From: an uncultured Ruminococcus sp.
Lineage (GTDB): Bacteria; Bacillota; Clostridia; Oscillospirales; Acutalibacteraceae
DNA length: 32,927 bases
NCBI GenBank assembly: GCA_902800065.1
Contig: CADCDE010000018.1
Location: 1-32,927 of the forward strand
Reading direction: 5' to 3'
Shown here: positions 14,263 to 32,118 of the stretch, piece by piece
Layout: each line of letters begins with the position of its first letter
Numbering within the stretch: position 1 is the stretch's first letter
Notes under the pieces: generated by a model
Seen by the model: the letters and a program-made list of their open reading frames with translations, nothing else
Database searches by the model: none
Told to the model about the DNA's origin: nothing
Program-made: the position numbers and the translations under genes

Positions 14263-14291
14263 TTGACAAATTGAACAAATAGTATTAGAAT
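14263..14291 (+). promoter_or_regulatory. Promoter of the biosynthetic-like cluster
   Basis: TTGACA (14263-14268), 17 bp, TAGAAT (14286-14291). It is the only good promoter I see before the eight-gene cluster; the start would be near 14298. Confidence 0.85.
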
Positions 14292-14339: not shown

Positions 14340-15419
14340 ATGATAAAGAAAATGACAATGAACGATAGAAGTATAATGAAGAAACTGATACCCCAGACCT
14401 GTAGTGTAAGATTTGACAGGAGCTGCACAGGAGGAATAACAAATAAGCTGACCGGCAGCACACCTAATATTCGTGTCCTTCTGATAGAGCTCAGCGGCGG
14501 AGGACAGAAAAGTGTTGTATTAAAGAAAACTTCCGGTATGATAGTTTTGAAGGGCAGTATACTTATGAGCAGAGGTAATATGCTGCTTCTGGCGGAATTG
14601 GTAATGTCTCATAAGATTTTCGGCTATAAGGGAAGCTATTTGAGGGAAAGCTGTATATATGAGCATTTTGCAAAAGAGTTCCGAAGTATTATTCCGGAAT
14701 ATTACGGAAGTCTGAAAAGACATCTCAGACATGAATGCTATATCTGCATTGAAAAATTTTCGGTAAATTCCTTTGGTGGAATGAAGGATTATACAGAGCT
14801 TACAGAACGGATAGCACATATAGCTGCTTTCTATTATCTTTATCCTGATAAAATAAATGGCATGATGCTCAACAGATATACTGCAGGAGATTACAAAAGA
14901 GGCAAACATCTTTTGCGTAAAATGTATGTCAAACTTGATAACACCGTGTTCGGAGAACTTGAGTGTGTGCTTGATGACTTTCTTGGGAATCTTGATATCG
15001 AGTTTTCAATAAACAGGGGTGTAAAGACTATTTCGCATAATGACTTTTCCGACAGAAATATAGTTAATGATGGGAATATTAGGATATATGACTGGGAGCT
15101 TGCCTGTGTTCAGAATCCCGAGCATGACCTTGTGGAATTTCTGGTGTCTGTTGCTCATAAATTGAAGAATGAAGAAATTGCGGCTCTTGTCGGACATTTT
15201 TGCCGCACCTTTTATGGCTCGATAGATAAAGATATTTGTGATGAAGAATTTAATGATATATTGATATATAATCTGCTTGAATATTCTGTCAATAAGCTCA
15301 CACTGCTCAGAACGGCAGCTTTGAATATGGAATTGAGCTTTACAAAAATATATGAAAAAAATGTAATAAGACTTTATGCACTGTTAAAGGAGAATGAAAA
15401 AAATGGACAGGGAACTTGA
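14340..15419 (+). CDS. APH/choline-kinase-like phosphotransferase
   Basis: A protein of up to 359 aa with the C-terminal catalytic signature of aminoglycoside/choline kinase-fold enzymes: SHNDFSDRN at about 232-240 (Brenner HxDxxxxN motif, written HNDFSDRN) and the metal-binding IYDWE near residue 251. These enzymes phosphorylate small alcohols, sugars or lipid head groups with ATP. The N-terminal lobe is less conserved, with a Gly/Lys-rich start and GGGQKSVVLKK as a possible nucleotide-binding strand. It is first in the cluster. No strong ribosome binding site precedes 14340; ATGs at 14352, 14358 or 14376 are alternatives. Context suggests a substrate in lipid or metabolite synthesis rather than antibiotic resistance. 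Confidence 0.72.
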   Translation: MIKKMTMNDRSIMKKLIPQTCSVRFDRSCTGGITNKLTGSTPNIRVLLIELSGGGQKSVVLKKTSGMIVLKGSILMSRGNMLLLAELVMSHKIFGYKGSYLRESCIYEHFAKEFRSIIPEYYGSLKRHLRHECYICIEKFSVNSFGGMKDYTELTERIAHIAAFYYLYPDKINGMMLNRYTAGDYKRGKHLLRKMYVKLDNTVFGELECVLDDFLGNLDIEFSINRGVKTISHNDFSDRNIVNDGNIRIYDWELACVQNPEHDLVEFLVSVAHKLKNEEIAALVGHFCRTFYGSIDKDICDEEFNDILIYNLLEYSVNKLTLLRTAALNMELSFTKIYEKNVIRLYALLKENEKNGQGT

Positions 15420-16284
15420 GATACTGAAATATGCCCATTATTACGAAAAAATTACTGTCGGGGAATATTCGCTTTATATGATGATAAACGATCAGATTGG
15501 CAAGGATGAATGTCTTTTCGGATTCTGTCGTCTCGAAGATGACATTGGACAATGGAAGGAATTGTTTTCTCTGCTGGAGAAAAAAGCGGCTGAAAAGGGA
15601 TGCCGTATTATTACGGGACCAATTAATTATACATCATGGATGAGTTACCGCTGGACAATTTCAAATTTTGACCTGAAACTTTTTCCCGACTGCGATAATC
15701 CGCCGTATTACCCGGATAATATACGGAAACTCGGCTATAGCGAAAGATATACCTACCGCAGTGCTGACATCGTTATAGAAAATCCGCTTTATACCATAGG
15801 CAGGGACATTTATGAGGAAAAGCTGAGGAAAGGCGTGAAATTCTTGCGTTTCAGAGGTGAGCAGGTATACAGCCATTGCAGGGAGGTTTATGATATTTCA
15901 ATTGATGCCTTTGCAGGGAGTTATCTTTATTCTGAAATACCATTCGGGGCTTTTGAACGTATATATACTGTCTGGACACGACAAGTGAATGTTGATCTTT
16001 TTATTGCATATATTGACGGAAAGGCTGTCGGTTATGTTATGGGATATGAGCATGACGGGAGATATATTTCAAAGACAAGTGCTGTATTAAAAAGACTTCA
16101 GGGAAACAAGCTGTATCTTGCTCTGCTGTATGCAGGCTGTCGGTATGTCAGGGAGACATTGGGATACGATGATATGATATACCATTTCCAGTGTGAGCAG
16201 AGAGCAACTTTCAGGCGTTTTGATGAGACAATAGAAAGCAATGAAAAGCGTTATGCAGTATTCTGCAAGGAGATTGTAAAATGA
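15403..16284 (+). CDS. GNAT-fold N-acyltransferase-like protein
   Basis: A 293-aa protein resembling the YghO-like GNAT group, where a block of type GPxNYxxW...NPPYY...LGY precedes the acyl-CoA domain. Here GPINYTSWMSYRW, DNPPYYPDNIRKLGYSE and the C-terminal fold with VDLFIAYIDGKAVGYVMGY (a GNAT beta4-beta5 pattern) are visible. GNAT enzymes move an acyl group from acyl-CoA or acyl-ACP to an amine. Start ATG 15403 has AAAGGAG 10 nt upstream; the ATG at 15394 is only 1 nt from it. It overlaps the kinase gene by 17 nt and the next gene by 4 nt, so translation is probably coupled. Confidence 0.7.
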   Translation: MDRELEILKYAHYYEKITVGEYSLYMMINDQIGKDECLFGFCRLEDDIGQWKELFSLLEKKAAEKGCRIITGPINYTSWMSYRWTISNFDLKLFPDCDNPPYYPDNIRKLGYSERYTYRSADIVIENPLYTIGRDIYEEKLRKGVKFLRFRGEQVYSHCREVYDISIDAFAGSYLYSEIPFGAFERIYTVWTRQVNVDLFIAYIDGKAVGYVMGYEHDGRYISKTSAVLKRLQGNKLYLALLYAGCRYVRETLGYDDMIYHFQCEQRATFRRFDETIESNEKRYAVFCKEIVK

Positions 16285-17345
16285 TATGCAAAATATGTCT
16301 TAATGATAATTCCGTCAGAAATATCAGCTTTAACAGTGAAGGTATATGCTGTTTTTGCGAAAATTACGGAAAAATAAAGTATAAACTGGATGATCAAAGC
16401 AGCCTGAAAAGATTGTTTGAACAGCGTATTGAAGGCGTTAGGGAAAAATATGCCTATGATGCGGCTGTCGGGATATCAGGCGGTAAGGACAGTGTTTATG
16501 TACTGTATAGTCTTGTAAAGGACTACGGACTTCATGTGAAGGCTTTCACAATGAATAACGGTTTTCTCAGCACAAAGGCACGGGAAAACATTGACCGTGT
16601 TGTAAGCCAACTTGGTGTTGAGCATGAATACATAGAATTTGATATGAAAAAGCTGCAAAGGTTTTATCATTATTCAATGAAAAAATGGCTTGTGCCTTGT
16701 ATTGCCTGTTCTTATATAGGGTATGCTTCCATGGTGAATTATGCATCAAGGATAAATGCGGGTATGGTCGTACACGGAAGAAGCCCTGCACAGATGCTGA
16801 GATTTTATGATAAGGATATATATTCCGAACTGATAAAGCCGGGACTTTTGCCCCCGGAAGATACAGACATCAGCGGTCTTTACAGCAGTTTGTTGAAAAA
16901 TATAGAGAAAAAAATTGACAGGGATATCATGCTTGATGTTCGTGAAATGCTGATGAATGATACGGATGAAGAAGATTTGCGTGAATTTGTCGCATTTTTT
17001 TTGTATCATCCGTATAACGAGAATAAAATAGTTGACTTTCTCAGAAAGAAAGTCGGTTGGGATACTCCGGAGGATTATGACCATTATGACTGCACCATAC
17101 ATAATGCAGCAAGATACATATATCAAAAAGCCGAGGGAAGACCACACACTTTACCTGAAATAAGTTCACTTATCCGTATGGGAGAGCTGACAAGGGAAGA
17201 AGGAAACCGAAGGCTTGAGGAACTTATTATAAATGAAAAGCCGTCTGAGGAGCTTGAGCGTCTTTTGGATTTTGCAGATATCAATGAAACAATGCTTTTT
17301 CTTAAAGCAGGAGTATACCGAATGAAACTAAAGCTGAATAATTAG
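16281..17345 (+). CDS. PP-loop amidotransferase-like enzyme (N-acetyl sugar amidotransferase family)
   Basis: A 354-aa ATP-pyrophosphatase. A zinc-knuckle-like start (C3-x2-C6 and C23-x2-C26) is followed by the PP-loop GISGGKDS at 64-71. This is the layout of WbpG/PseA-type amidotransferases, which adenylate a substrate carbonyl and insert nitrogen or sulfur. A Cys pair in VPCIACSYIGY (near 139-145) may bind metal or act in catalysis. The family normally takes ammonia from separate HisH/HisF-like subunits; none is encoded nearby, so the nitrogen or sulfur donor is unknown. AAGGAG lies 7 nt before the ATG, which overlaps the previous stop (ATGA). Confidence 0.75.
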   Translation: MICKICLNDNSVRNISFNSEGICCFCENYGKIKYKLDDQSSLKRLFEQRIEGVREKYAYDAAVGISGGKDSVYVLYSLVKDYGLHVKAFTMNNGFLSTKARENIDRVVSQLGVEHEYIEFDMKKLQRFYHYSMKKWLVPCIACSYIGYASMVNYASRINAGMVVHGRSPAQMLRFYDKDIYSELIKPGLLPPEDTDISGLYSSLLKNIEKKIDRDIMLDVREMLMNDTDEEDLREFVAFFLYHPYNENKIVDFLRKKVGWDTPEDYDHYDCTIHNAARYIYQKAEGRPHTLPEISSLIRMGELTREEGNRRLEELIINEKPSEELERLLDFADINETMLFLKAGVYRMKLKLNN

Positions 17346-17354
17346 GGTGAATCT

Positions 17355-17852
17355 ATGAAAAGTTATCTGATGTATAAAAACAGGCTTATAATATATACGG
17401 TCATTTCAGCGGCTGCGGCTTTTATAACAGGCTTGGTTTCAGAAGATATGTCCGCTGAAGGAATAGTCAGGAGTGCAGTTTATTTCTGGCTTCTCATACA
17501 TATTTCAAGGGCAGTGGATGACCTTTCGGATTATGAAAGTGACAGCATTCATTTGATAGATAAAAAAACGCTTTCAGTCTATATTGCTGTTCTTATGGTG
17601 ACGCTTGTGGGCAGCAGTGTATTTTTTTTCGGAATGAGGGGATTTGTGTCCGTTGCAGCGGCAGTTTATCTGTTCATTATGGAGAAATTTGATTTACTGA
17701 CACTGCTTTCTGCATTTGTCGGCTGTGTATGCCTGTTTTTTATGGCTGAGGGTGCGGAAGTCTTTACAAAAATGTCGGTTATTGTTTTTCTTGCTTTGAC
17801 GATTTTTTGGGAAACGCTTTTTTATGTTTATAAGAGGAGTAAAAGAGAATGA
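17355..17852 (+). CDS. Small integral membrane protein with UbiA-like acidic motif
   Basis: A 165-aa, very hydrophobic protein with about five or six membrane segments (near 11-30, 36-54, 75-95, 97-112, 115-132, 138-160). After the second segment it has RAVDDLSDYESDS, which resembles the first Asp-rich motif of UbiA prenyltransferases (NDxxDxxxD). The second Asp-rich motif is absent and the length is about half that of UbiA, so it is either a truncated or reduced relative or an unrelated membrane protein. AGGGTG precedes the ATG and its stop overlaps the next ATG by 4 nt. It could hold a lipid substrate for its soluble neighbours. Confidence 0.55.
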   Translation: MKSYLMYKNRLIIYTVISAAAAFITGLVSEDMSAEGIVRSAVYFWLLIHISRAVDDLSDYESDSIHLIDKKTLSVYIAVLMVTLVGSSVFFFGMRGFVSVAAAVYLFIMEKFDLLTLLSAFVGCVCLFFMAEGAEVFTKMSVIVFLALTIFWETLFYVYKRSKRE

Positions 17853-20401
17853 TAATTACATACAGAGATACAGACTGTGATATAAAAAAAGCAGGCGGAA
17901 AGGCGTATAATCTTTGGAGGCTGAGCAGAGAAGGCTTCAATGTTCCAAAGTGGATAGTATTGTCTGCTGATATATTTTCTGATGCTCTCGGCAGTTATCT
18001 TGTGCAGTACCGTATGCTTTTGGAAAATTACAGAAATGAAAACAGAGAAAAAATAACATATATTATAAATAATTGCAGCTTTACCGAGAAAATGAAACAG
18101 GATATACTTTCCGCTGTAAAAGAAAATATCGGAAGTTTTCCTGTTGCAGTGCGTTCAAGTGCAGTGGATGAGGACGGAGACAAGCATTCCTTTGCAGGAA
18201 TGATGGAATCGTATCTTAATGTAAATGAGGACAGTCTGTTTGAAAGCATAAAAAAATGCTGGTGTTCATGCTTTTCTGAAAGGGCAATGCAGTACCGTCT
18301 CCAAAACGGGCTTGATATTTCGTCACTCAGTATGGCTGTTATAATACAAAAAATGATAGAGCCTGATATTGCAGGTGTTATGTTTACAACGAATCCCAAA
18401 ACTAATGATACAGACGAGGTATTTGTAAGTCTTGTAAGGGGCAGCGGTGAAAAGCTTGTTTCAGGTGAATGCAGCAGTGAGGACCATACTGTTGACAGCA
18501 GCGGAAATATTACTGACAGTGAATATAATGAAAAGGAATGTATGGCAGATAAGGAAATGCTACGCCATCTTGCGGAAACGGCTGTTCGCATAGAAAAAAT
18601 GTCAGTTCCCCGTATAACTGTCGATGTGGAATTCTGTGTAAGGGACACAGAGATATTCATACTGCAGTCAAGAGCGGTTTCTGCATACAGTCATATCGAC
18701 AAGAACAAACCGAGAATAATACTTGACAATTCAAATATAATAGAAAGCTACAGCGGGGCAGTCACCAATCTGACCTTTTCATTTGCAAGAGAGGTGTATT
18801 CAAAGATATACAGACAGGTTCTGCATTATTTCGGAGTGCCAAAGGAGTCTGTAAGTGCGATTGACAGTGACCTTGACAATATGCTCAGCTTTTATGAAAA
18901 TAAAGTATACTATAAAATGAACAGCTGGTACCGTATGACTGCTCTGTATCCCGGTTATGAAACAAACCGTAAATATATGGAAAATATGATGGGCGTAAAA
19001 AAGGGAAATAACAGTGAACAGGATATTCAGTCTGTTTCAAAGGGAAGGATATATTTTCGCCTGTTCAAAAAGTATCTTACTCTGAAAAAGGACAGTGATA
19101 AATTCCGCCGCCGGTTTGACGAGGTCACACATGGTCTTTACGGAAATGATTTTGAGGGAATGGATAACAAGGCACTGATGGATATTTATGCAGGACTTGA
19201 AAGAAACATACTTGATGATTTTATAACACCTATTGCCAATGATATGTTTGCAATGGTGTTTTACGGTGTGCTTACTGATAAGCTGAAAAAGAAAAATATC
19301 CCCGGCAGTGACGGTCTGATAAGCGAGCTTCTCGGTAAACAGGGAAATGTTGAAAGTGCTGTACAAAGTACTGTTCTGATTGGGATAGTAAACCGAATCA
19401 AAGAGGATAAAGACCTTGAAAAACTGTTTCTTGAGTCAGATAACGATACACTGAAAAAATTTATATCAGAAAGCGAAAATGACATTTTTTTCAGTTTAAG
19501 AAAGTATATCCATGATTACGGCTGTCGGACAATGGATGAATTGAAACTGGAGACTGTTACCATGCTTGAAGACAGTTCATATCTGATTGGCACTATAAGA
19601 AACTATCTGACAGTTGAGCTTCCTTCTTTACATGAAAAGCCCAAGGAAAGCGATATGAACAAAATTTTCAGTGCTTATGGAATTTTCACAAGACCATTCA
19701 TAAAATTTCTTGTTGAGAAAACCAAGTATCTTATACGCAACCGTGAATCACTACGTCTCAGGCGTACATATATTTATTCTATCGTAAGGAAAATCTATAT
19801 AAGAGTCGGGATAAATCTCGCCCGTGACGAAATCATAAAAAATCCCCGTGACATATTCTTTCTTGAAAAGCCGTTTATCACTGATGTAATCGAAGGCAGG
19901 CAGACAGATATTCAGCTTATACAAAAAAGAGTCGAGGAAAACAGAAAGAGATATATTGAAAATAAAGAAAAAGAAACATATGAACGAATTTATTTTTACG
20001 GTGAAATGACAGAGGAAAATGCAGTTCCGGTGTATTCCTCACAGGAAATCGGCGAGGAGAATGGTGTACTTCACGGAGTTGCAGGAGGTGGAGGAACTGT
20101 TACCGGCAAGGTAAGGCTTGTATTGTCACCGGAGGATTCGGATGTCAGGGGCATGATACTTATGGCAAAAAGAACAGATCCAGGCTGGACGATACTTTTT
20201 CCGATGGTCAAAGGGATAATAATAGAGAGGGGCAGTATACTGTCACATTCTGCCGTAATCGCAAGGGAAATGGGAATCCCGCTCGTTGCAGGGATAAGAG
20301 GACTTACAGATAAGATACATGACGGAGATATTGTGGAAATAGACGGCATAAACGGTACAGTGCGAGTTGTAGGTGAGGAAAATGGAGAACAAGGTTTTTA
20401 G
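17849..20401 (+). CDS. PEP-synthase/rifampin-phosphotransferase-like dikinase
   Basis: The 850-aa protein has the three-part layout of PEP synthase and rifampin phosphotransferase. The N-terminal ATP-grasp region (about 1-280) shows KAGGKAYNLWRL and AVRSSAVDEDG. A long central region (about 290-740) would hold the substrate. The C-terminal swivelling domain (about 755-850) shows ERGSILSHSAVIAREMGIPLV, with phospho-carrier His800. Such enzymes split ATP into AMP and phosphate and pass the beta phosphate through the His to a substrate. The PEP-synthase pyruvate domain is not visible and the length is close to Rph, so the acceptor is probably another small molecule, perhaps the cluster's product. 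It is translationally coupled on both sides. Confidence 0.82.
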   Translation: MIITYRDTDCDIKKAGGKAYNLWRLSREGFNVPKWIVLSADIFSDALGSYLVQYRMLLENYRNENREKITYIINNCSFTEKMKQDILSAVKENIGSFPVAVRSSAVDEDGDKHSFAGMMESYLNVNEDSLFESIKKCWCSCFSERAMQYRLQNGLDISSLSMAVIIQKMIEPDIAGVMFTTNPKTNDTDEVFVSLVRGSGEKLVSGECSSEDHTVDSSGNITDSEYNEKECMADKEMLRHLAETAVRIEKMSVPRITVDVEFCVRDTEIFILQSRAVSAYSHIDKNKPRIILDNSNIIESYSGAVTNLTFSFAREVYSKIYRQVLHYFGVPKESVSAIDSDLDNMLSFYENKVYYKMNSWYRMTALYPGYETNRKYMENMMGVKKGNNSEQDIQSVSKGRIYFRLFKKYLTLKKDSDKFRRRFDEVTHGLYGNDFEGMDNKALMDIYAGLERNILDDFITPIANDMFAMVFYGVLTDKLKKKNIPGSDGLISELLGKQGNVESAVQSTVLIGIVNRIKEDKDLEKLFLESDNDTLKKFISESENDIFFSLRKYIHDYGCRTMDELKLETVTMLEDSSYLIGTIRNYLTVELPSLHEKPKESDMNKIFSAYGIFTRPFIKFLVEKTKYLIRNRESLRLRRTYIYSIVRKIYIRVGINLARDEIIKNPRDIFFLEKPFITDVIEGRQTDIQLIQKRVEENRKRYIENKEKETYERIYFYGEMTEENAVPVYSSQEIGEENGVLHGVAGGGGTVTGKVRLVLSPEDSDVRGMILMAKRTDPGWTILFPMVKGIIIERGSILSHSAVIAREMGIPLVAGIRGLTDKIHDGDIVEIDGINGTVRVVGEENGEQGF

Positions 20402-21440
20402 TGAGATTATAAGATATGCGTCATGCTGGGAAGATACGGAAAATTTGTTGAGGGCAGGCACAATAAAAGACAAGACTTGTGTATCGGTCATTTCAGGCGG
20501 AGACAATACGTTTTCACTCTTGACAGAGAATCCTGCACATATTATCGGATTTGACCTTAATCCGAAGCAGATAGCTCTTTTTAAGCTGAAGGCATCGGCA
20601 TTCAGAACTCTTTCATACGAAGAATTGCTTGAATTTTTAGGGATATATCCGTGTGAAAACAGACTCGGATTATTTGACAGTCTTCCGCTTGAGGATGATG
20701 TCAGAAAATCATTTCAGCCTGATGTTATTGAAAAAGGTATTATCCATGCAGGAAAATTCGAGCATTATTTTCAGCTTTTCCGTAAAAGAATAATCCCCCT
20801 GTTTTCGACCGGTGAGCGGTTCAGGGAATTTGCAGTGCTTGACAATACTGATATTCAGAAGGAGTATTTCCGGAAATACATTGATACAAGGCGTTTCAGG
20901 ATAATATGCAGGATATTTTTCGGAGCAAGGGCAATGGGAAAACACGGGCGTGACAGGTCATTTTACAGGTATGTGAGCGATAAGGAAAATCAGGGAAATG
21001 AAATAATAGACCGTTTTATATTCGGCATATCAAATACAGTAAACCGCACAAATCCATATTTGCGTTATATATGCACGTCAAATTATGCACCCGAAGCACT
21101 TCCGTTTTATCTGAGAAAAGAGAATTTTGAAAAGATACGAGGCGGTCTTGACAGAATAGAGATAAGACAGGGTGACCTTTTGAATCTGAAGGAAATAAAG
21201 GCGGATTTCTTCAATCTTTCAGATATATTTGAATATATGAGTACGTTTGATTTCCGCAGGAATACTGCTGTTCTCAGGAAAATGGCAAACCCTTTTTCAG
21301 CAGTGGTTTATTACAATATGCAGAATAAAAGATATATAAATGATCCTGCATTTGAGCTTGACGAGGATTTGTCACGGATTCTGTATCGTCAGAATCAGTC
21401 ATTTTTCTATCGTGATTTTCTGATATATAACAGATCATAA
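20382..21440 (+). CDS. DUF3419/BtaA-like aminocarboxypropyl transferase
   Basis: A 352-aa SAM-dependent enzyme of the DUF3419 family, whose best-known member, BtaA, moves the 3-amino-3-carboxypropyl group of SAM to diacylglycerol to start betaine lipid synthesis. Visible features are IIRYASCWEDTENL at the start, the SAM-site SVISGGDNTFSLL (35-47) and IIGFDLNPKQIALFKLKA (54-71, acidic residue in DLNP), and a second half with FFNLSDIFEYMS. Start ATG 20382 is preceded by AGGTGAGG; a GTG at 20373 is possible. It overlaps the dikinase gene by 20 nt. No BtaB-like N-methyltransferase is nearby, so the product would be an unmethylated homoserine ether or something new. Confidence 0.8.
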   Translation: MENKVFSEIIRYASCWEDTENLLRAGTIKDKTCVSVISGGDNTFSLLTENPAHIIGFDLNPKQIALFKLKASAFRTLSYEELLEFLGIYPCENRLGLFDSLPLEDDVRKSFQPDVIEKGIIHAGKFEHYFQLFRKRIIPLFSTGERFREFAVLDNTDIQKEYFRKYIDTRRFRIICRIFFGARAMGKHGRDRSFYRYVSDKENQGNEIIDRFIFGISNTVNRTNPYLRYICTSNYAPEALPFYLRKENFEKIRGGLDRIEIRQGDLLNLKEIKADFFNLSDIFEYMSTFDFRRNTAVLRKMANPFSAVVYYNMQNKRYINDPAFELDEDLSRILYRQNQSFFYRDFLIYNRS

Positions 21441-21462
21441 AGTGACAGAGAGGCATGAAAAT

Positions 21463-22911
21463 ATGAGTGTGATTACAGAAAGATTTGAAGAAAAATGCAG
21501 GGAATGCAGTGAAAAAACGGCTGTTATTACAGTACAGGACGGTAAAAAATTCTGCAGAACTTTCGGACAGCTTTATGAAGATATAAAGAGCTTTTCGGGA
21601 TATTTTGAAAAAAAAGGGGTATTAAGTGGACAAAAGATACTTCTCTTTGCGAAAATATCATACAGATTGGTCGTATTTATGATAGCAGCTATGAGAATGG
21701 GAATTGCGGTCATGTTTGTTGATATATCGGCTTTGCAGGATGATCCCGGGAATGTTATAGAAAGATTCAGACCTGATCATATCCTTGTTTCAAAAAAGAC
21801 AAAGCTGCTGCGTTTTTTGTTTCGGGGAACGAGAAAAATAAAGAGTTTTATTGATATTGACAGCATTTCATTTAATTTGGAAGATGCTGTAATTACAGAT
21901 GCAGCAGAAAACTCTGTTGCACTTCTCACAATGACAACAGGCTCTACAGGAGTACCAAAGATAATACCACGGACACATTCCGAGCTGCTTTCACAGCTTG
22001 AACTGATACGAGCCAATATGAAGGATGCTGAAAATGATATTATACTGACAACGTCCTTTATGTATGTATTTGCAAATCTTATTAGCGGATATACTACTGT
22101 TCTTCCTACAGTATCCCTTGCAGGAAAGGGAACACAGCTTAATAAGTATTTTTCTTCTTTTAAAGATTTGAGGATCACAATGATAATAACCTCACCTGAT
22201 TTTTGTCTTAAAGTCAGCGGTATGTTCCCAGAACTCAGAACGATGTATATAGGTGGTGCAATACTGAACCGATATGAGACAGAGCGTATCCTTGAAAAAT
22301 TCGGACAGGCGGATATTTTTTATATATATGGCTCAACAGAATGCAATCTGATGGCTTGTACAAGGCTTGATTATTATAAGGAGAGGCTTTTTTCAGATGA
22401 AAGTTGTCTTGGAGAGATTGTCAATGGTGTTTCGGTCATGATCAGGGATGATGAAATATTTGTCAGCAGCAGTGCTCTCCTTAAAAATGACATAAGCGGT
22501 TTTTCTTCAAATTGTTTGACGGAAAACGGAAATGTATGGTATTCAACGGGAGATGCAGGGTATATAAAGGACAGTAAGTTGTATTATCTCGGGAGAAAAA
22601 AATTTTCATTTAAAGAAGGCGATAGAAGGATATATTATAATCAGATAGAACAATATGTATCTGTAAGAATGCCAGAAATTCAAAAATGTGCTTTTATTCA
22701 AAATGATGGTATGAAGCTGTTATTTACGGAAGGCAATAATGTTTCATTTGAAAATGCGGCAAGGCTTGTCAAAGAAGGCTTTGGATTTGATGTGACCGTA
22801 AAAAGTCTTGATCATATTCCAAGGGATGTAAAGCACAATACGAAAGTTGATTATAAGAAACTCTTTGCGGAGAATAAAAAAATATGGAATACACAATTGA
22901 CAATGCGTTAA
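21463..22911 (+). CDS. Adenylate-forming acyl ligase (OleC/peptide-synthase-like)
   Basis: A 482-aa ANL-superfamily enzyme. The phosphate-binding loop MTTGSTGVPKIIPRTH is at about 157-172, the Y-G-S-T-E adenylate motif (IYGSTECN) near 289, and STGDAGY near 360. The C terminus ends in IPRDVKHNTKVDYKKL, close to the (D)IRHNAKI tail of OleC/long-chain acyl-AMP ligases. It would activate a carboxylate as acyl-AMP. Start ATG 21463 has GAGAGG upstream; a GTG at 21442 directly after the previous stop is an alternative. It overlaps the next ligase gene by 28 nt. Confidence 0.82.
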   Translation: MSVITERFEEKCRECSEKTAVITVQDGKKFCRTFGQLYEDIKSFSGYFEKKGVLSGQKILLFAKISYRLVVFMIAAMRMGIAVMFVDISALQDDPGNVIERFRPDHILVSKKTKLLRFLFRGTRKIKSFIDIDSISFNLEDAVITDAAENSVALLTMTTGSTGVPKIIPRTHSELLSQLELIRANMKDAENDIILTTSFMYVFANLISGYTTVLPTVSLAGKGTQLNKYFSSFKDLRITMIITSPDFCLKVSGMFPELRTMYIGGAILNRYETERILEKFGQADIFYIYGSTECNLMACTRLDYYKERLFSDESCLGEIVNGVSVMIRDDEIFVSSSALLKNDISGFSSNCLTENGNVWYSTGDAGYIKDSKLYYLGRKKFSFKEGDRRIYYNQIEQYVSVRMPEIQKCAFIQNDGMKLLFTEGNNVSFENAARLVKEGFGFDVTVKSLDHIPRDVKHNTKVDYKKLFAENKKIWNTQLTMR

Positions 22912-24290
22912 AAGAAAATATTGTAAAATACGGCAGCAGAGGCTATATTTATGAAAAGGAAAACGGTAAATACCGTGAGCACACCTACAGGGAATTCTGT
23001 GAAGATGTGTACCGCTGCTCAAATTATCTGCATGATAACGGATTCGGAAAGGTCATCGCATTGTATGCGGCAAATTCATATAAATATATGGTACTTGATA
23101 CAGCAATAATGGGATATATCGGAATATGCATGACGCTTTCAAAAGAATGGACATATGATGATATTGACCGTATGCTGGAGACAAAAAAAATAGACAGTCT
23201 GATCTATGACAGTGACCGTGCGGAGTCTGCAAAAAGGCTTGCGGAAAAGCATAAGGAAATAAAGTTTGTCTGTATGGAAGAAATAAAGCTTTCAGAGGAA
23301 TATACTATTCTCAGTCCGCAGGACAGGGAAACAAGCTGTAAGGTGATATTTTCATCAGGGACTACAGGTATACCAAAGGGAGTGATGCTTTGTCAGAGGA
23401 ATATGTTTGCAAGCTGGGAAAACCTTCTGAGAAGGGCACACTTTGATTATACTGATGTAGACTATCTTTTTTTGCCGCTTAATCACACCTATGCCGGGAT
23501 ATGCAATTTCCTTTATTCTGTACTGAGCGGAATGCAGATATGGCTTTGCTCGGACACAAAAAAGATTTTTGAGGAAATACTTGAGGTCAGACCGACTATG
23601 TTTTGTGCTGTACCTCTGATATATGAGAGGCTTTATTCGGTATGCCTTGAGAAAAATCTCAATCCTGTTGAGGTTCTTGGAGGCAGAATAAGATTTCTTT
23701 TTTGTGGCGGTGCATATATGAAGCCCGAGATACGAAAATACTTAAAGGAATGCGGGCTTAATCTGATGGAGGCATACGGTCTGAGTGAGACATCATCTCT
23801 TATTTCTACGGAGTATTCTTATTCAGATGATGACTTTACCTCCTGCGGCAAAATATACGAGCATCTTGATGTAAAAATCTCCGATGACGGAGAAATAATC
23901 GTAAAGGGTGATAATATTTTTAACGGTTATTATCAGGATAAGGAGCTTACTGCAAAGTGCTTTGACAAGGACGGATATTTCAAAACGGGTGATCTCGGCG
24001 ATATAAGAGACGGAAAGCTGTATATCACGGGCAGAAAAAAACGTGTTATAATCCTGTCAAACGGAGAGAATGTCTATCCGGATGATATAGAGAGATGCTT
24101 TGAAGGAACAGCGAATATTGCAAAGGTAAAGGTTTTTGAGAAAAACAAGGAGATTTTTGCGACTCTTTATGTATCAGGTGAGATAAATGCCGAAGATGTG
24201 GTCGTAAGGGTAAATGCTTCTCTGCCGAAGTATTCACGAATATCTGCTTATGAGGTGATCCGTGACAGTATTTCAAGCAGGATGAAATAA
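22884..24290 (+). CDS. Long-chain acyl-CoA synthetase-like AMP ligase
   Basis: A second ANL enzyme, 468 aa, shorter than typical FadD-type ligases (about 550 or more). Motifs: IFSSGTTGIPKGVML (about 155-169), AYGLSETSS (about 297-305), FKTGDLGDI (about 366-374) and TGRKKRVIILSNGENVYP (about 380-397), the hinge and the start of the C-terminal domain. It should activate a fatty acid or other carboxylate. It is only distantly similar to the preceding ligase, so the two probably use different substrates. It ends the cluster; a hairpin lies 31 nt downstream. Confidence 0.85.
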   Translation: MEYTIDNALKENIVKYGSRGYIYEKENGKYREHTYREFCEDVYRCSNYLHDNGFGKVIALYAANSYKYMVLDTAIMGYIGICMTLSKEWTYDDIDRMLETKKIDSLIYDSDRAESAKRLAEKHKEIKFVCMEEIKLSEEYTILSPQDRETSCKVIFSSGTTGIPKGVMLCQRNMFASWENLLRRAHFDYTDVDYLFLPLNHTYAGICNFLYSVLSGMQIWLCSDTKKIFEEILEVRPTMFCAVPLIYERLYSVCLEKNLNPVEVLGGRIRFLFCGGAYMKPEIRKYLKECGLNLMEAYGLSETSSLISTEYSYSDDDFTSCGKIYEHLDVKISDDGEIIVKGDNIFNGYYQDKELTAKCFDKDGYFKTGDLGDIRDGKLYITGRKKRVIILSNGENVYPDDIERCFEGTANIAKVKVFEKNKEIFATLYVSGEINAEDVVVRVNASLPKYSRISAYEVIRDSISSRMK

Positions 24291-24321: not shown

Positions 24322-24359
24322 AGCCCCTGTTTGCAGTGTGTGAGCTGCAAACAGGGGCT
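24322..24359 (+). terminator. Strong hairpin after the cluster, poor U tract
   Basis: AGCCCCTGTTTGCAG (24322-24336) pairs perfectly with CTGCAAACAGGGGCT (24345-24359) around an 8-nt loop. It is followed by ATTAAAATTT, not a proper T run. It probably ends or stabilises the cluster mRNA. Confidence 0.6.
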
Positions 24360-24637: not shown

Positions 24638-26815
24638 ATGAAAGCTGCACATATAAAACCTGACTCTGATGAGATACAGTCTGTCAGGGATCACTCGTAT
24701 GCTACGGCGGATATGGCACGGAAATTTGCTGCTGCACCGATAGAGAGTATTATTTACAATATGGGGCTTTTACATGATATAGGAAAATATCAGGATTCTT
24801 TTCAGCAAAAAATATTGTACGGCAAAAACTTCAGAGTAGATCATTCAACCTGTGGAACAGTTGAAGCTGCAAGGCTTTTCGGAAAAGGTCCTGCTTCTTT
24901 GATGATGCAGTATTGCATTGCCGGACACCATTCGGGTATACCAAACGGCGGAACTCCCCAGGATACTGCTGATGATACCTCACTGTATGGAAGACTGAAA
25001 AGAACTGAATTGCTTGAAGACTATTCGGATTACAGATTAGAGATATCGGCAGACAAGCCCGATGAAAATGAGCTTAAAAAATTTCTGAAAAAAACAACTT
25101 ATGATAATGAAAGCCTGATAGAGTCATTTGCGTTTGTTACACGCTATTGCTTTTCATGTCTCACAGATGCAGATTCCCTTGATACAGCATATTTTTGCAA
25201 TGGAAGAAGGGATATTGAGCTGACATCAGATTTCGGGAACTGCCTGAAAAAATTGGACTGTAAAATGTCATCGTTTAAAGCCGAAACTCCGCTGCAAAGA
25301 TCACGTTCACTTCTTCAAGAACAAGTCTATGAAAAAATCCGTACCGATTCCGAAATATATCTGATGAATATGCCGACAGGCAGCGGAAAAACCTTATGCA
25401 GTATCAAATTTGCATTGATGAGGGCGATGCTTTCAGGGAAAAAAAGAATTATTTATGTTATTCCCTATAACAGTATCATTGATCAGACTGCTGCTGTATT
25501 TGAGGATATATTCGGAGATAGTATGCAGATACTTCGACACCAGTCATCATTCTGTGTTGATGATGCCGACAGAGATGAAGATTATAGGCAGCTTATCAAA
25601 AATGTGACGGAAAACTGGAATGCACAGATAATTGTTACGACATCTGTACAGTTTTTTGAATCGGTATATGGAAATAAAAGAAACAAGTTAAGAAAATTGC
25701 ATAACATGGCAGACAGTATAATTGTATTTGACGAAGCTCACCTTATGCCGACAGAGTACCTTCAGCCATGTCTTCGTGCAGTTTCATATCTTACGAGACT
25801 CTTTAACAGTGAAGCTGTATTTCTTACAGCTACGATGCCTGACTTTGACGGGCTTATCAAAAAATATGCATTGAAGAACAGCCGTATTACAGAATTGGTC
25901 ACCGACAAATCACTTTTCGACAGCTTTAAAAAAGGTGATTTCTGCAATATGGGTATGGTCAGTGAAGAAAAATTGCTTGAAAATGCCTGTTTACAGCCGT
26001 CCTCGCTTATAGTTGTCAACAAAAGGAAAACGGCTTCAAGGCTCTATGATATGGCACCAGGTAAAAAATATCATTTATCTACATATATGTCAGCCTTTGA
26101 CAGAAAATGTGTAATTGATGAGATAAAGGAAGAATTGGATGCTTTGTACCGTGATTATCCGACACTTGAAAATGTCCCGAAGGAAAGGCATATTATTGTT
26201 ATTTCCACTTCACTGATAGAAGCGGGTGTTGATTTGGATTTCTTTACAGTCTACCGTGAATTGTCCGGTCTTGACAGCATACTTCAGGCAGGCGGTCGAT
26301 GCAACAGGGAAGGAAAAAGACAGAATGCAAGGATAAATGTTTTCAGATTCGGTGAAGGCGTTGAAAGCACCAAGGTCAATATAACAAGGTCGCTCATAGA
26401 AAAATATCAAGACATTGCCTCACCTGAATGCATCAAGGAGTATTATGAAAGACTGTATGATTTTAACGATGAGCAGATCAAAAAGAATTCCATTGCCAAC
26501 GGAGTCACAAGGCTTGAATCGATTCCTTTTGCAGAATATGCTGATAAATTCAGTATGATAGATGACAATACGGTTGCAGTAGCTGTTGAATGTAATGATG
26601 AAAGCAAAGAACTCATTGCCCGGTTGAAATCAACAGGGTTTACCGATCACCGCAGGCTTCAGAAATACACCTTCACTGTATATTTATATGAACTGAATCA
26701 GCTCAGAGAACAGGGTGTCGTGAAAGAATACGGCGGGATATGGTGTCTTGAAAACAATGAATACTACAGTAATGACAAGGGTATCACATTTGAGGCAAAG
26801 GATTATTATTGTTAA
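24638..26815 (+). CDS. cas3: CRISPR-associated helicase-nuclease Cas3
   Basis: Cas3 is the nuclease-helicase that degrades DNA recognised by the type I-C Cascade complex. The 725-aa protein has an N-terminal HD nuclease (H19; LLHDIGK with H46-D47; AGHHSG near 95; TDADSLD near 175-181) and a superfamily 2 helicase: Walker A MPTGSGKT (about 245-252), DEAH box VFDEAHLMP (about 363-371), SATMP-like LTATMP and motif VI QAGGRCNREG. All catalytic residues I can check are intact. AAAGGTGG precedes the ATG. It is first of seven cas genes in canonical I-C order. Confidence 0.95.
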   Translation: MKAAHIKPDSDEIQSVRDHSYATADMARKFAAAPIESIIYNMGLLHDIGKYQDSFQQKILYGKNFRVDHSTCGTVEAARLFGKGPASLMMQYCIAGHHSGIPNGGTPQDTADDTSLYGRLKRTELLEDYSDYRLEISADKPDENELKKFLKKTTYDNESLIESFAFVTRYCFSCLTDADSLDTAYFCNGRRDIELTSDFGNCLKKLDCKMSSFKAETPLQRSRSLLQEQVYEKIRTDSEIYLMNMPTGSGKTLCSIKFALMRAMLSGKKRIIYVIPYNSIIDQTAAVFEDIFGDSMQILRHQSSFCVDDADRDEDYRQLIKNVTENWNAQIIVTTSVQFFESVYGNKRNKLRKLHNMADSIIVFDEAHLMPTEYLQPCLRAVSYLTRLFNSEAVFLTATMPDFDGLIKKYALKNSRITELVTDKSLFDSFKKGDFCNMGMVSEEKLLENACLQPSSLIVVNKRKTASRLYDMAPGKKYHLSTYMSAFDRKCVIDEIKEELDALYRDYPTLENVPKERHIIVISTSLIEAGVDLDFFTVYRELSGLDSILQAGGRCNREGKRQNARINVFRFGEGVESTKVNITRSLIEKYQDIASPECIKEYYERLYDFNDEQIKKNSIANGVTRLESIPFAEYADKFSMIDDNTVAVAVECNDESKELIARLKSTGFTDHRRLQKYTFTVYLYELNQLREQGVVKEYGGIWCLENNEYYSNDKGITFEAKDYYC

Positions 26816-26829
26816 GGAGATGATAAAAA

Positions 26830-27552
26830 ATGAGCAGAGGGTTCAGAATTATGGCAGAGGGAGACTATGCATTGTTTACCCGTCCTGAGATGAAGGTTGA
26901 ACGAGTAAGCTATGATGTACCGACTCCCGGAGCACTTGAGGGTATGCTGAAAAGCATTTACTGGAAGCCTGCCATCCGCTATAAGATTGACAAAATTATT
27001 GTATTCAACCCCATTCATTTTACCGGTGTACGCAGAAATGAAGTTAAGGATAAAATATTGTTTCAGAACATGAAGGGGCAGATGAACGGCAAAGGAAATG
27101 ATCCCTGTATTTATGAGGAAAGAACACAAAGAGCGTCTATGCTTTTGAAAGATGTCTGCTACGGGATAGAATTCCATTTTGATATGACAGGTCTGAAAAG
27201 TACACATGATGACGAGGACGAAAAAAAGCACTATAACATCATCAAAAGACGTTTGGAAAAAGGTCAGTGCTTCCGTACACCGTGCTTCGGATGTGCGGAA
27301 TTTCCGGTAAGAAAGATAGAGCTTGTTGAAGACTTTGATATGAACCGTATCAGTCCTGAAATAAAAGCTATGGGTGATGTTGATCTGGGCTTTATGAGTT
27401 ATAGGTTGGAATTCAAGGACAACGGCATACCGCTCAATAACAACTGGGATGATCCGATATTTTCAGACAAGGCATCAACGAAATATTACCGTCCGCATAT
27501 GATAAACGGCATAATAGATGTCCGCAGGTATAAGGAGATGATGAAATGCTAA
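26830..27552 (+). CDS. cas5c: Type I-C Cas5 (crRNA-processing subunit)
   Basis: A 240-aa Cas5d/Cas5c protein. In type I-C there is no Cas6; Cas5c cuts the pre-crRNA at the repeat stem and stays bound to the 5' handle in Cascade. The sequence shows the RAMP-type start (FRIMAEGDYALFTRPEM), the family motif SYDVPTPGALEGMLKSIYWKP, and VRRNEV. AAGGAG lies 9-10 nt upstream of the ATG, 14 nt after cas3. It overlaps the cas8c start by 7 nt. Confidence 0.94.
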   Translation: MSRGFRIMAEGDYALFTRPEMKVERVSYDVPTPGALEGMLKSIYWKPAIRYKIDKIIVFNPIHFTGVRRNEVKDKILFQNMKGQMNGKGNDPCIYEERTQRASMLLKDVCYGIEFHFDMTGLKSTHDDEDEKKHYNIIKRRLEKGQCFRTPCFGCAEFPVRKIELVEDFDMNRISPEIKAMGDVDLGFMSYRLEFKDNGIPLNNNWDDPIFSDKASTKYYRPHMINGIIDVRRYKEMMKC

Positions 27553-29306
27553 TAAATGCCCTGTGTGAATATTATGATGAATTGGCAAAGGAAGGCAAGG
27601 TAGTGCCGGAGGGATATTCAAAACAGCCGATAGATTACATTATCACCATTACACCAGAAGGAAAAATGGATAGTATAATACCCGAAGAAAAAATAACCCC
27701 CACCTACGCTCCAAGAAGAGAAAAAACCACTTCGATCAAGGCTCATAAACTTGATCATAGAGCTGGATATATATTTGGGTTGGAATATGATTCAGAAAAC
27801 AAAAAAATGTGTATTGCTATCGAAAAACATAATAAATTCGTAGAAATGAATTTGTCATTCATTAAAGGAATGAGTTCTCCGCTTATCAATGCCTATCGAA
27901 TTTTTTTGGAAACATGGATTCCAGAAAACGAAACCGAAAATCCATTTTTACTGAAAATTGCTCCAAAAATGAATTCGGCAAAGTTTGCATTTTCACTTAC
28001 CGGAACCCCTAATGAAAACTTATTTTCTGAACCGGAGATTAAAAATAAAGTATTGTCTGATTTGACAGAAAATGGTAAATATGAAAAGGATATTGCTCGC
28101 AGCCAATGTGCTATTACCGGAAATATGTCCGTTATTTCCAAATTGCATGATAATATTAAGGGAATAGCTGGTACTAAAAGTTCAACACTGATTAGTTATA
28201 ACGAAACAGCATTTTGTTCCTATACTAACAAAGCATCGTATAATAGCAATATATCCAATGAAGCTATGAAGAAATATACAGAGGCTCTGAACTCTTTACT
28301 GTCTGATAAAAAGCATTATACCATCATTTATGATACAACAGTAGTTTACTGGGCAACAGGTGATTCAGTGAATAATGATCGCTGTAATCTTTTTAACTCT
28401 TTCTTTAACGATACAACAAATTATGAAGAAGAAGATAAGATGGACATATCACAGACAGATCAGATGCTGTCTGATACCTTCAAGTTGGCAAGAGAAGGAA
28501 AAATTACAAGAGAAAGGATTTCCGATCTGACAGGTATCAGCGAAAATATTGATTTTTATATTGTTGGCTTTAAGCCTAATACACAGCGTCTTGCACTTAA
28601 ATTCATCTATCGCAGACGCTTTGCTGATATCCTGTTTTCCATCGCAAAGCATCAGGAGGATATGTATATCACAGGAAGTAAAAGATCGGTTCCGTTTTGG
28701 ATTCTGAAAAAAGAGTTGGTTTCGCCTAAAGCAAATAATCCGAGTATTGATGCATCATTATTGTCGGCTGTCTTCAAATCAATTCTCTATAGTTCACCAT
28801 ATCCGAATTATCTGCTTTCGACTCTTGTTTCAAGAGTTAAAACAGACCAGTATATCAATACTGTCCGTGCAGGTGCAATAAAAGCCTGCATCAACAGACA
28901 GGAAAGAGCTGTAAATAAAAAGGAGGAATTAACAGTGGCTCTCGATATCAACAATACCAACCAGGCATATCTTTGCGGAAGACTTTTTGCTGTACTCGAA
29001 AAGATACAGAGAATTTCCTTAAATGGAAATGAAATCAACCGTACCATCAAGGATGCGTATTTCGCATCTGCCGCATCAAAGCCCTCGCTCGTCTTTCCAA
29101 AATTACTTTCCCTTTCACAGAATCACATCAAGAAGCTGAATGACGGCAATAAGGTGTTTTACAGTAAAATGGTACAGGAGATCATCTCCAAAATAGACGG
29201 AGAATTTCCCGATACACTCATGCTCACAGATCAGGGAAAATTCATGATAGGATATTACCATCAGGTACAGGCTTTTTTTGAAAAAAATAACAAGGAGGAA
29301 AATTAA
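27546..29306 (+). CDS. cas8c: Type I-C large subunit Cas8c (Csd1)
   Basis: Cas8c, 586 aa, is the large subunit of the I-C Cascade, which reads the PAM and helps recruit Cas3. The start MLINALCEYYDELAKEG and the following KQPIDYIITI are characteristic of Csd1. The C-terminal helical part (from about residue 464) doubles as the small subunit Cas11c through an internal start (28935). It overlaps cas5c by 7 nt and ends just before the cas7c ATG. Confidence 0.93.
   Translation: MLINALCEYYDELAKEGKVVPEGYSKQPIDYIITITPEGKMDSIIPEEKITPTYAPRREKTTSIKAHKLDHRAGYIFGLEYDSENKKMCIAIEKHNKFVEMNLSFIKGMSSPLINAYRIFLETWIPENETENPFLLKIAPKMNSAKFAFSLTGTPNENLFSEPEIKNKVLSDLTENGKYEKDIARSQCAITGNMSVISKLHDNIKGIAGTKSSTLISYNETAFCSYTNKASYNSNISNEAMKKYTEALNSLLSDKKHYTIIYDTTVVYWATGDSVNNDRCNLFNSFFNDTTNYEEEDKMDISQTDQMLSDTFKLAREGKITRERISDLTGISENIDFYIVGFKPNTQRLALKFIYRRRFADILFSIAKHQEDMYITGSKRSVPFWILKKELVSPKANNPSIDASLLSAVFKSILYSSPYPNYLLSTLVSRVKTDQYINTVRAGAIKACINRQERAVNKKEELTVALDINNTNQAYLCGRLFAVLEKIQRISLNGNEINRTIKDAYFASAASKPSLVFPKLLSLSQNHIKKLNDGNKVFYSKMVQEIISKIDGEFPDTLMLTDQGKFMIGYYHQVQAFFEKNNKEEN
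28935..29306 (+). CDS. cas11c: Cas11c small subunit from an internal start in cas8c
   Basis: Inside cas8c, in the same frame, AAGGAGG (28920-28926) stands 8 nt before GTG 28935. Initiation there gives a 123-aa helical protein starting MALDINNTNQAYLCGRL, the expected size of Cas11. Internal translation of Cas11 from cas8 has been shown experimentally for type I-C and other subtypes; in this sequence it is inferred from the near-perfect ribosome binding site. Cas11 lines the target-strand side of Cascade in several copies. Confidence 0.85.
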   Translation: MALDINNTNQAYLCGRLFAVLEKIQRISLNGNEINRTIKDAYFASAASKPSLVFPKLLSLSQNHIKKLNDGNKVFYSKMVQEIISKIDGEFPDTLMLTDQGKFMIGYYHQVQAFFEKNNKEEN

Positions 29307-29307
29307 A

Positions 29308-30168
29308 ATGATCAACAACAGATATGATTTTGTAATGCTTTTCGATGTGGAGAACGGAAATCCCAACGGTGATCCCGATGCAGGAAATGCTCCGAGAATA
29401 GATGCCGAAACAGGCTACGGTTATGTGACCGATGTATGCCTGAAAAGAAAGATAAGAAATTATGTGGAGCTTGTCAAGGGCGGAGAGGAAAAATATAACA
29501 TTCTTATCAAAATAGACAAGGCTCTGAATACGAAATTTACTGATGTCTATATAAAAAATGGACTCGATAGAACCAAGAAAGGAAAAAAGAACAAGGATAA
29601 GAAAGATGTAAATGCAGCAAGGGAATATATGTGCAAAAATTACTATGATGTCCGTATGTTCGGTGCTGTCATGGATACAGGTGATGATCCATGCGGCATC
29701 GTGAGAGGTCCTGTGCAGATAAACTTTGCAAGAAGTATTTCTCCTGTGAATATACAGGATATCACTATTACCAGGCAAGCTGTTACAAAAGAAGAACATT
29801 TTAAGGATAAGGATAACGAAATGGGAAAAAAGAGTTTTATTCCTTATGGACTGTACCGTGCAGAAGGCTATGTTTCAGCAGCACTTGCCAATAAAACTAC
29901 TGATATCAGTGATGAAGACATTGAATTGCTTTGGCAAGCCATTATAAATATGTTCGAGGAAGACCACAGTGCAGCAAGAGGAAAAATGTGTATGAGAAAG
30001 CTGATTATTTTCAAGCATGACAATGTTCTCGGAAATTGCCCGTCACATATTCTTTTCGATAAGATAACTGTTGAAACATGCTCTGTTTCGCCGAGAAATT
30101 TCTCTGATTATAAAATTACTGTTGACCAGACAATGCCTGAAGGTGTCGAGATAATAGAAAAGCTATGA
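29308..30168 (+). CDS. cas7c: Type I-C backbone subunit Cas7c (Csd2)
   Basis: Cas7c, 286 aa, polymerises along the crRNA to form the Cascade backbone. The family hallmark FDVENGNPNGDPDAGNAPR (residues about 11-29) is intact, followed by GYVTDVCLKRKIRNYV. Later RGPVQINFARSISPV and EDHSAARGKM are also typical. The ATG at 29308 has AAGGAGG upstream; a frame from 29278 would add basic residues overlapping cas8c. It overlaps cas4 by 4 nt. Confidence 0.95.
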   Translation: MINNRYDFVMLFDVENGNPNGDPDAGNAPRIDAETGYGYVTDVCLKRKIRNYVELVKGGEEKYNILIKIDKALNTKFTDVYIKNGLDRTKKGKKNKDKKDVNAAREYMCKNYYDVRMFGAVMDTGDDPCGIVRGPVQINFARSISPVNIQDITITRQAVTKEEHFKDKDNEMGKKSFIPYGLYRAEGYVSAALANKTTDISDEDIELLWQAIINMFEEDHSAARGKMCMRKLIIFKHDNVLGNCPSHILFDKITVETCSVSPRNFSDYKITVDQTMPEGVEIIEKL

Positions 30169-31816: not shown

Positions 31817-31827
31817 GTGATATAATT

Positions 31828-32118
31828 ATGATGGTGCTTATAAGCTATGATGTTTCGACATCCGATGAGGGTGGAAAAAAACGTCTGAGAAAAGTGGCAA
31901 GGGAATGTCAGAATCATGCTCAGCGTGTACAAAATTCCGTTTTTGAAGCAGACCTTGATTATTCTGCTTTCATGAAATTGAAAAGCAGATTAGAGGATAT
32001 AATAGATAAAGACAATGACAGCCTGAGATTCTATTATCTCGGTAACAACTGGAAACATCGAATAGAGCATATCGGAGCCAAAAATACATACGATCCCGAA
32101 GGGGTGATAATCATCTGA
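31828..32118 (+). CDS. cas2: CRISPR adaptation protein Cas2
   Basis: Cas2, 96 aa, bridges two Cas1 dimers during spacer integration. It has the ferredoxin-like start MMVLISYDVST with the conserved Asp, the RVQNSVFEADLD strand, and a type I-C C terminus (HIGAKNTYDPEGVIII). The start at 31828 (AGGTGAT upstream) is chosen over 31798, which overlaps cas1. It is the last cas gene. Confidence 0.96.
   Translation: MMVLISYDVSTSDEGGKKRLRKVARECQNHAQRVQNSVFEADLDYSAFMKLKSRLEDIIDKDNDSLRFYYLGNNWKHRIEHIGAKNTYDPEGVIII

What the first reader, a model, noticed from the sequence alone, without database searches (positions are those of the whole stretch)
14340..24290. Eight-gene biosynthetic-like cluster joining a BtaA-like enzyme, a dikinase, a PP-loop enzyme and two AMP ligases
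The genes are co-oriented, mostly overlapping, and follow one good promoter. The combination (APH-like kinase, GNAT, PP-loop amidotransferase, small membrane protein, Rph/PEP-synthase-like dikinase, DUF3419/BtaA-like transferase, two adenylate-forming ligases) is not one I recognise. A reasonable reading: the ligases activate acyl groups, the GNAT attaches one to an amine, the BtaA-like enzyme adds a homoserine unit from SAM, and the kinase and dikinase phosphorylate a head group. The product could be a new amino-lipid or acylated metabolite. Families are seen in sequence; the pathway is inference.
Basis: partly seen in the sequence, partly recalled or inferred. Interest (0 to 1): 0.8.

Follow-up and report, generated by a model that had tools for sequence, protein, structure and literature searches.

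The report
Widespread SAM-derived lipid-type gene cluster
Eight overlapping genes in this bacterium are one form of a gene set that recurs across some twenty bacterial phyla; it is predicted to build an acylated molecule, likely a membrane lipid, from the homoserine part of S-adenosylmethionine, by a pathway that our literature searches did not find described.

Summary
In detail: eight co-oriented, mostly overlapping genes (14340-24290) follow an 11-of-12 promoter match. All eight occur in the same order in 14 of the 80 best DUF3419 loci. A core of dikinase, BtaA-like transferase, GNAT and AMP ligase, with a UbiA-type membrane protein and a lipid or APH kinase, recurs in loci carrying 22 phylum labels. 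Families co-vary (distance correlations 0.58-0.93; 0 of 500 permutations) and are fused in places: mini-UbiA with dikinase, lipid kinase with GNAT, HMG-CoA-reductase-like with APH. The 'small membrane protein' is a truncated UbiA. Catalytic residues are kept. Canonical-type BtaA lacks the dikinase (0 of 59 control loci), and three genomes carry both types, so ordinary betaine-lipid synthesis is unlikely. Limit: other DUF3419 types mostly lack the dikinase too (5 of 29 sampled loci have it), so the link holds for one clade. Best reading: a membrane pathway that likely adds aminocarboxypropyl from SAM to a phosphorylated lipid alcohol, N-acylates it and, in Bacillota, may convert the amide to an amidine. 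The product is unknown; paper searches found no description.

The parts
14263..14291 (+). promoter-like site TTGACA-17-TAGAAT, 48 nt before g1
   Evidence: consensus match only
14340..15419 (+). g1, APH/choline-kinase-like phosphotransferase (359 aa)
   Evidence: Pfam APH 25.5 bits; HND, N240 and D251 (YDWE) kept in 17 of 17 rows
15394..16284 (+). g2, GNAT-fold acyltransferase (296 aa), predicted N-acyltransferase
   Evidence: Acetyltransf_1 20.6 bits, just under cut-off; family in 68 of 80 loci
16281..17345 (+). g3, PP-loop ATPase of the WbuX N-acetyl-sugar-amidotransferase type (354 aa)
   Evidence: TIGR03573 157 bits over 2-337, below its cut-off 203; SGGKDS and four Cys kept in 21 of 21 rows
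17355..17852 (+). g4, mini-UbiA membrane protein (165 aa) with DDxxDxxxD motif
   Evidence: profile match to the full UbiA family of the other clusters, 94% probability; fused to the dikinase N-terminus in L072, L077, L080
17849..20401 (+). g5, RPH-type dikinase: ATP-grasp, central domain, C-terminal phosphohistidine domain (850 aa)
   Evidence: catalytic His800 kept in 75 of 75 readable rows (77 rows aligned)
20373..21440 (+). g6, DUF3419/BtaA-like, predicted SAM 3-amino-3-carboxypropyl transferase (355 aa; likely start at 20382)
21442..22911 (+). g7, adenylate-forming ligase A, the core one, nearest to the OleC/PRK09274 type (489 aa)
   Evidence: A10 Lys in 65 of 69 readable rows, Arg in 4 (72 rows aligned)
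22884..24290 (+). g8, adenylate-forming ligase B, FadD/MenE-like (468 aa), in the Bacillota-type clusters
   Evidence: family in 21 of 80 loci
24322..24359 (.). 15-pair GC-rich hairpin after g8, probable end of the unit
   Evidence: scored as terminator on the - strand

Best explanation
The eight genes form one conserved gene cluster, predicted to be a single operon, that likely makes an N-acylated aminolipid whose amino-acid part would come from S-adenosylmethionine through the BtaA-like enzyme. Shown: gene set, order, co-variation, fusions and kept catalytic motifs. Inferred steps: (1) an alcohol, likely a lipid alcohol, is phosphorylated by a kinase (APH type g1 here; a CdsA/dolichol-kinase-like membrane kinase in other phyla). 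(2) The RPH-type dikinase g5, held at the membrane by or acting with the mini-UbiA g4, transfers the beta-phosphate of ATP through its phosphohistidine onto the intermediate. (3) g6 transfers 3-amino-3-carboxypropyl from SAM to it. (4) Ligases g7/g8 activate an acyl group and g2 attaches it to the new amine. (5) In the Bacillota form, the PP-loop enzyme g3 adenylates the amide and may turn it into an amidine, as WbuX-type enzymes do with N-acetyl sugars (this reaction is recalled). Step order and substrates are inference.
For: Same eight genes in order in 14 of 80 loci; core set in loci carrying 22 phylum labels; distances of nine partner families correlate with DUF3419 (r 0.58-0.93; 0 of 500 permutations each); fusions mini-UbiA-dikinase, lipid kinase-GNAT, HMGR-like-APH. 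Kept catalytic residues: dikinase R/E 73 of 73 and His 75 of 75 readable rows, PP-loop 21 of 21, APH 17 of 17 (RPH residues from passages of PMC4844700). SAM-methyltransferase fold of the g6 model. Lipid setting: UbiA and CdsA-like membrane partners, LplT-Aas (10 of 80) and HAE3/MMPL-type RND exporters (5 of 80) near the set. APH and lipid kinase never share a locus (0 of 80), as expected if one replaces the other, though this also follows lineage.
Against: The 80 loci were picked as best matches to the window's own subfamily; in an independent look at 29 lower-scoring Planctomycetota DUF3419 places only 5 have the dikinase, so DUF3419 as such is not tied to it. Some Saccharibacteria loci (L007, L022) have no AMP ligase or UbiA nearby, two Bacillota genomes have only an HMGR-APH fusion next to DUF3419, and 20 of 80 loci show neither kinase as a stand-alone hit, some because contigs end or because of fusions. 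g3 lies below the WbuX cut-off and no HisF/HisH partner is in the operon. The co-variation test does not separate shared pathway from joint inheritance or joint transfer. The lipid kinase and g6 models have no Foldseek match at E <= 0.001.
Confidence: 0.5

Rival explanations
1. A non-lipid secondary metabolite: the genes build a soluble N-acylated amino-acid product (antibiotic, signal or metal-binding compound), with g6 adding aminocarboxypropyl to a small molecule.
For: ACP transferases also make soluble products such as isonocardicin C and discadenine (passage of PMC10491745); the dikinase family includes prodigiosin ligase PigC (292 bits); the set is patchy and rare in its genus (2 of 37).
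Against: UbiA-type and CdsA-like membrane partners, LplT-Aas and RND exporters; the known function of BtaA is on diacylglycerol (passage of PMC3972451).
Confidence: 0.22
2. A variant of betaine-lipid (DGTS) synthesis: g6 is an ordinary BtaA and the other genes only tune head group or acyl supply.
For: Same Pfam family, PF11899.
Against: No BtaB-like methyltransferase among the eight genes; canonical-type loci have no dikinase (0 of 59, about 1.5 kb each side) and R. leguminosarum has DUF3419 next to a SAM methyltransferase; genomes G240, G237 and G923 carry a high-scoring, canonical-type copy as well as the cluster copy; in the tree 83 rows stand apart from the two Rhizobium rows, though these have long branches and one of them was set as the root.
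Confidence: 0.13
3. Decoration of an envelope polymer or polyprenyl-linked glycan (PP-loop and GNAT as in acetamidino-sugar pathways).
For: g3 is nearest to WbuX, named in a surface-polysaccharide cluster (passage of PMC11340318).
Against: No glycosyltransferase, flippase or polymerase family among the eight proteins; none was identified among the recurring neighbour families, though F12, F15-F17 and F19-F21 were not searched against Pfam; g3 is absent from the clusters of most phyla (20 of 80 loci, 3 of 22 phylum labels).
Confidence: 0.08
4. Chance neighbours or several independent transcription units.
For: Homologues of single families are common elsewhere (general knowledge); many weaker promoter-like sites lie inside the region.
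Against: Overlapping starts and order kept in 14 loci, fusions, co-variation.
Confidence: 0.02

Closest known systems
BtaA/BtaB betaine-lipid (DGTS) synthesis (R. sphaeroides, S. meliloti)
   Same: g6 is of the BtaA family PF11899 and its model has a SAM-binding fold
   Different: no BtaB methyltransferase in the operon; separate subfamily; dikinase, UbiA-type, kinase, GNAT and ligases are added; three sampled genomes have both types
Rifampin phosphotransferase RPH / prodigiosin ligase PigC dikinases
   Same: ATP-grasp + central domain + C-terminal phosphohistidine domain; residues K22, R117, R666, E667, H825 of RPH kept, K670 as Arg, T136 as Ser
   Different: scores far below the Rph and PigC models (233 of 999, 292 of 1300 bits); conserved R560..ELKLE motif (73 of 73 readable rows); sits in a lipid-type operon
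WbuX/PseA N-acetyl-sugar amidotransferases
   Same: full-length similarity, PP-loop and Cys motif; follows a GNAT gene
   Different: below the family cut-off; no HisF/HisH partner and no sugar genes in the operon
UbiA prenyltransferases
   Same: g4 keeps the first Asp motif; full-length UbiA relatives take its place in other phyla
   Different: g4 has only the first half; in the full-length relatives the region of the second Asp motif reads EIGRKIR..EE.GVETYS (motif position recalled)
HMG-CoA reductase (in related clusters, not in this window)
   Same: strong PF00368 matches; catalytic Glu in 18 of 18 readable rows, Lys, Asp and His in 19 of 19 (which residues are catalytic is recalled)
   Different: Glu or Asp where 6hr7 has Ser (19 of 19); tested hosts use the MEP route and lack HMG-CoA synthase

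Membership tests
BtaA (PF11899) | match over the Pfam gathering score | tested here: met
   147.9 bits against 28.2
BtaA (PF11899) | SAM-binding class I fold | tested here: met
BtaA (PF11899) | transfers aminocarboxypropyl to diacylglycerol | not testable with these tools
   needs an assay
BtaAB / DGTS pathway | BtaB-type N-methyltransferase partner | tested here: not met
   none among the eight genes; the rest of the genome was not searched for one
Rph dikinase | three-domain order with C-terminal phosphohistidine domain and catalytic residues | tested here: met
   residues named in passages of PMC4844700; two of them conservatively changed
Rph dikinase | NCBIfam NF041857 cut-off (rifamycin-inactivating) | tested here: not met
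   232.7 bits against 999
PEP synthase | C-terminal pyruvate-binding domain | tested here: not met
   only PPDK_N and the mobile domain pass their cut-offs; the latter ends at residue 836 of 850
WbuX amidotransferase | TIGR03573 cut-off | tested here: not met
   157.3 bits against 203.2
WbuX amidotransferase | PP-loop SGGKDS and Cys motif | tested here: met
   21 of 21 rows
UbiA (for g4) | first Asp motif | tested here: met
   R52, D55, D59, D63 invariant in 14 rows; profile match 94%
UbiA (for g4) | full length with second Asp motif | tested here: not met
   165 aa, matched over the first motif region only; no Pfam match
OleC beta-lactone synthetase (for g7) | NF045786 cut-off | tested here: not met
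   48.6 bits against 900
Anti-phage defence system | PADLOC model match | tested here: not met
   0 of 8 proteins at E <= 0.01

The most novel reading that the evidence does not exclude
The operon is one branch of an unrecognised class of bacterial membrane lipids spread over some twenty phyla: sphingolipid-like molecules built not from serine but from the homoserine arm of SAM, with an N-acyl chain and a phosphorylated alcohol, the carboxyl group being reduced to that alcohol by a repurposed HMG-CoA reductase in several phyla, and the amide being turned into a cationic amidine by the PP-loop enzyme in Bacillota.
Probability: 0.1. Interest if true: 0.92.

Novelty: new variant of a known kind. 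Interest (0 to 1): 0.74.

Why it matters
BtaA, which makes betaine lipids, is the only characterised function of DUF3419 that I know of. Here a second subfamily is tied to a dikinase, a UbiA-type protein and an acylation module in loci of about twenty phyla, including oral and gut Bacillota, Saccharibacteria, Fusobacteria, Planctomycetes and Chloroflexi. A pathway this widespread without a known product is a direct target for lipidomics, and genomes with and without it are at hand. The altered HMG-CoA reductases in related clusters are a separate testable surprise.
Full report
What is in the window. Eight + strand genes fill 14340-24290 with overlaps of 4-29 nt or gaps of 1-9 nt. One strong promoter-like site precedes them and a 15-pair hairpin follows. 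Families: APH-type kinase, GNAT, WbuX-like PP-loop enzyme, small membrane protein, RPH-type dikinase, DUF3419/BtaA-like enzyme, two AMP ligases. GNAT (20.6 bits, cut-off 20.7) and PP-loop (157, cut-off 203) are under their curated scores. Upstream, on the other strand, lie an FtsX-type permease and its ABC ATPase; downstream a type I-C-like cas operon and a repeat array.

How far it is conserved. DUF3419 relatives number 3213 proteins (best 120 listed). I mapped families on these loci with tblastn, ORF clustering and family HMMs; each frame got one family, so fused domains are not counted twice. All eight genes in the same order and strand: 14 of 80; seven of them (no APH): 2 more (L006, L011). 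Over all 80: dikinase 76, ligase A 71, GNAT 68, full UbiA 46, lipid kinase 44, ligase B 21, PP-loop 20, mini-UbiA 19, HMG-CoA-reductase-like 19, APH 16, LplT-Aas 10, RND 5. The dikinase lies directly upstream of DUF3419 in 63 of 80 by a strict rule and in 68 if longer frame overlap is allowed. The four loci without any dikinase are L026, L034, L039 and L074, the last two on short contigs. The loci carry 22 phylum labels, 11 loci being unlabelled. Twenty loci in other lineages have UbiA-dikinase-DUF3419-lipid kinase-GNAT-ligase in that order. A plasmid of Roseinatronobacter has the same six, annotated only as UbiA, PEP/pyruvate-binding, DUF3419, two hypothetical proteins and AMP-binding.

Rarity near home. 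In the window's genus 2 of 37 genomes have g6 (2 of all 60 relatives searched); in the order 1 of 197, the window's own; in the phylum 3 of 398, the window's own included, have any DUF3419. Many of the genus genomes are incomplete.

Evidence that the genes work together. Pairwise distances of nine partner families correlate with those of DUF3419: dikinase 0.85, ligase A 0.88, GNAT 0.85, UbiA 0.72, lipid kinase 0.88, PP-loop 0.93, ligase B 0.81, APH 0.89, HMGR-like 0.58; 0 of 500 label permutations reached any of them. This does not tell a shared pathway from joint inheritance. Fusions: mini-UbiA with dikinase in L072, L080 (Treponema) and L077 (Bacillales); lipid kinase with GNAT in L053; HMGR-like with APH in L034 and in two Bacillota genomes whose locus is that fusion plus DUF3419, without a dikinase in the stretch (L089, L090). 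APH and lipid kinase never share a locus, nor do PP-loop and full UbiA (0 of 80 each).

Controls. Canonical BtaA: R. leguminosarum has DUF3419 next to a SAM methyltransferase and no dikinase. Of 59 high-scoring loci, canonical-type by my reading of the score, from Planctomycetota and Pseudomonadota, fetched with about 1.5 kb on each side, 0 have the dikinase. I then fetched 29 of the lower-scoring Planctomycetota places; two known clusters (G240:C54, G237:C294), four higher-scoring places without loci and the short or weakest fragments were left out. Five of these 29 have the dikinase; of the four that score over 430 bits with the cluster HMM, three do (L158, L162, L163; the fourth, L169, has the lipid kinase and little upstream contig). 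So DUF3419 is a diverse family and the dikinase link marks one clade. G240, G237 and G923 carry a high-scoring canonical-type copy and a cluster copy.

The HMG-CoA-reductase clue (relatives only). Nine genomes with a cluster HMGR (ten asked, L056 not held) have one HMGR match each (9 of 9), while HMG-CoA synthase is absent (0 of 9), mevalonate kinase over cut-off is absent (0 of 9, with weaker matches in 5) and DXR is present (9 of 9). All 19 cluster copies have Glu or Asp where 6hr7 has Ser, and Ala or Val after DKK where 6hr7 has Pro, while catalytic Glu (18 of 18 readable), Lys, Asp and His (19 of 19) are kept. That this Ser holds the HMG group is recalled. I infer a changed substrate, possibly another acyl-CoA reduced to the alcohol that the kinase then phosphorylates. 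Twelve genomes with the Bacillota-type cluster, the window's own and one Saccharibacteria genome among them, have no HMGR at all (0 of 12).

Mechanism and doubt. The most economical reading is a membrane pathway in which an alcohol is phosphorylated (g1), worked on by the dikinase with the mini-UbiA (g5, g4), given an aminocarboxypropyl group from SAM (g6), N-acylated (g7/g8 with g2), and in Bacillota modified by the PP-loop enzyme (g3), perhaps to an amidine. BtaA chemistry is known from passages of PMC3972451 and PMC10491745. Every step in this operon is inference; a soluble product is not excluded. None of the papers listed by the searches aimed at the cluster reads as a description of it.

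Noticed in passing
window 24638-32927: Type I-C-like CRISPR-Cas locus (Cas3, Csd1/Cas8c, Cas1 by Pfam) with an array of nine 36-nt repeat copies and a tenth cut by the window's end.
   Followed up: partly
L030, L034, L040, L041, L043, L046, L047, L051, L053, L055, L056, L057, L062, L064, L065, L068, L071, L074, L079: Cluster-borne HMG-CoA reductase homologues, all with Glu or Asp in place of the Ser of 6hr7, in hosts that use the MEP route where tested (9 genomes).
   Followed up: partly
L034:4591-7359: HMGR-APH fusion whose N-terminal part looks PilZ-like by eye (motif recalled, not searched).
   Followed up: no
L072, L077, L080 GNAT genes: The GNAT carries an N-terminal HAD-phosphatase-like part (by eye, not searched), and the neighbouring dikinase carries the mini-UbiA.
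   Followed up: no
L153, L155, L156: Other DUF3419 types of Planctomycetota sit beside RND transporters without the dikinase: further uncharacterised contexts.
   Followed up: no
window 1778-2806 (-) and 7100-9211 (+): A prokaryotic RING-finger/zinc-ribbon protein and a TPR-GGDEF protein.
   Followed up: no
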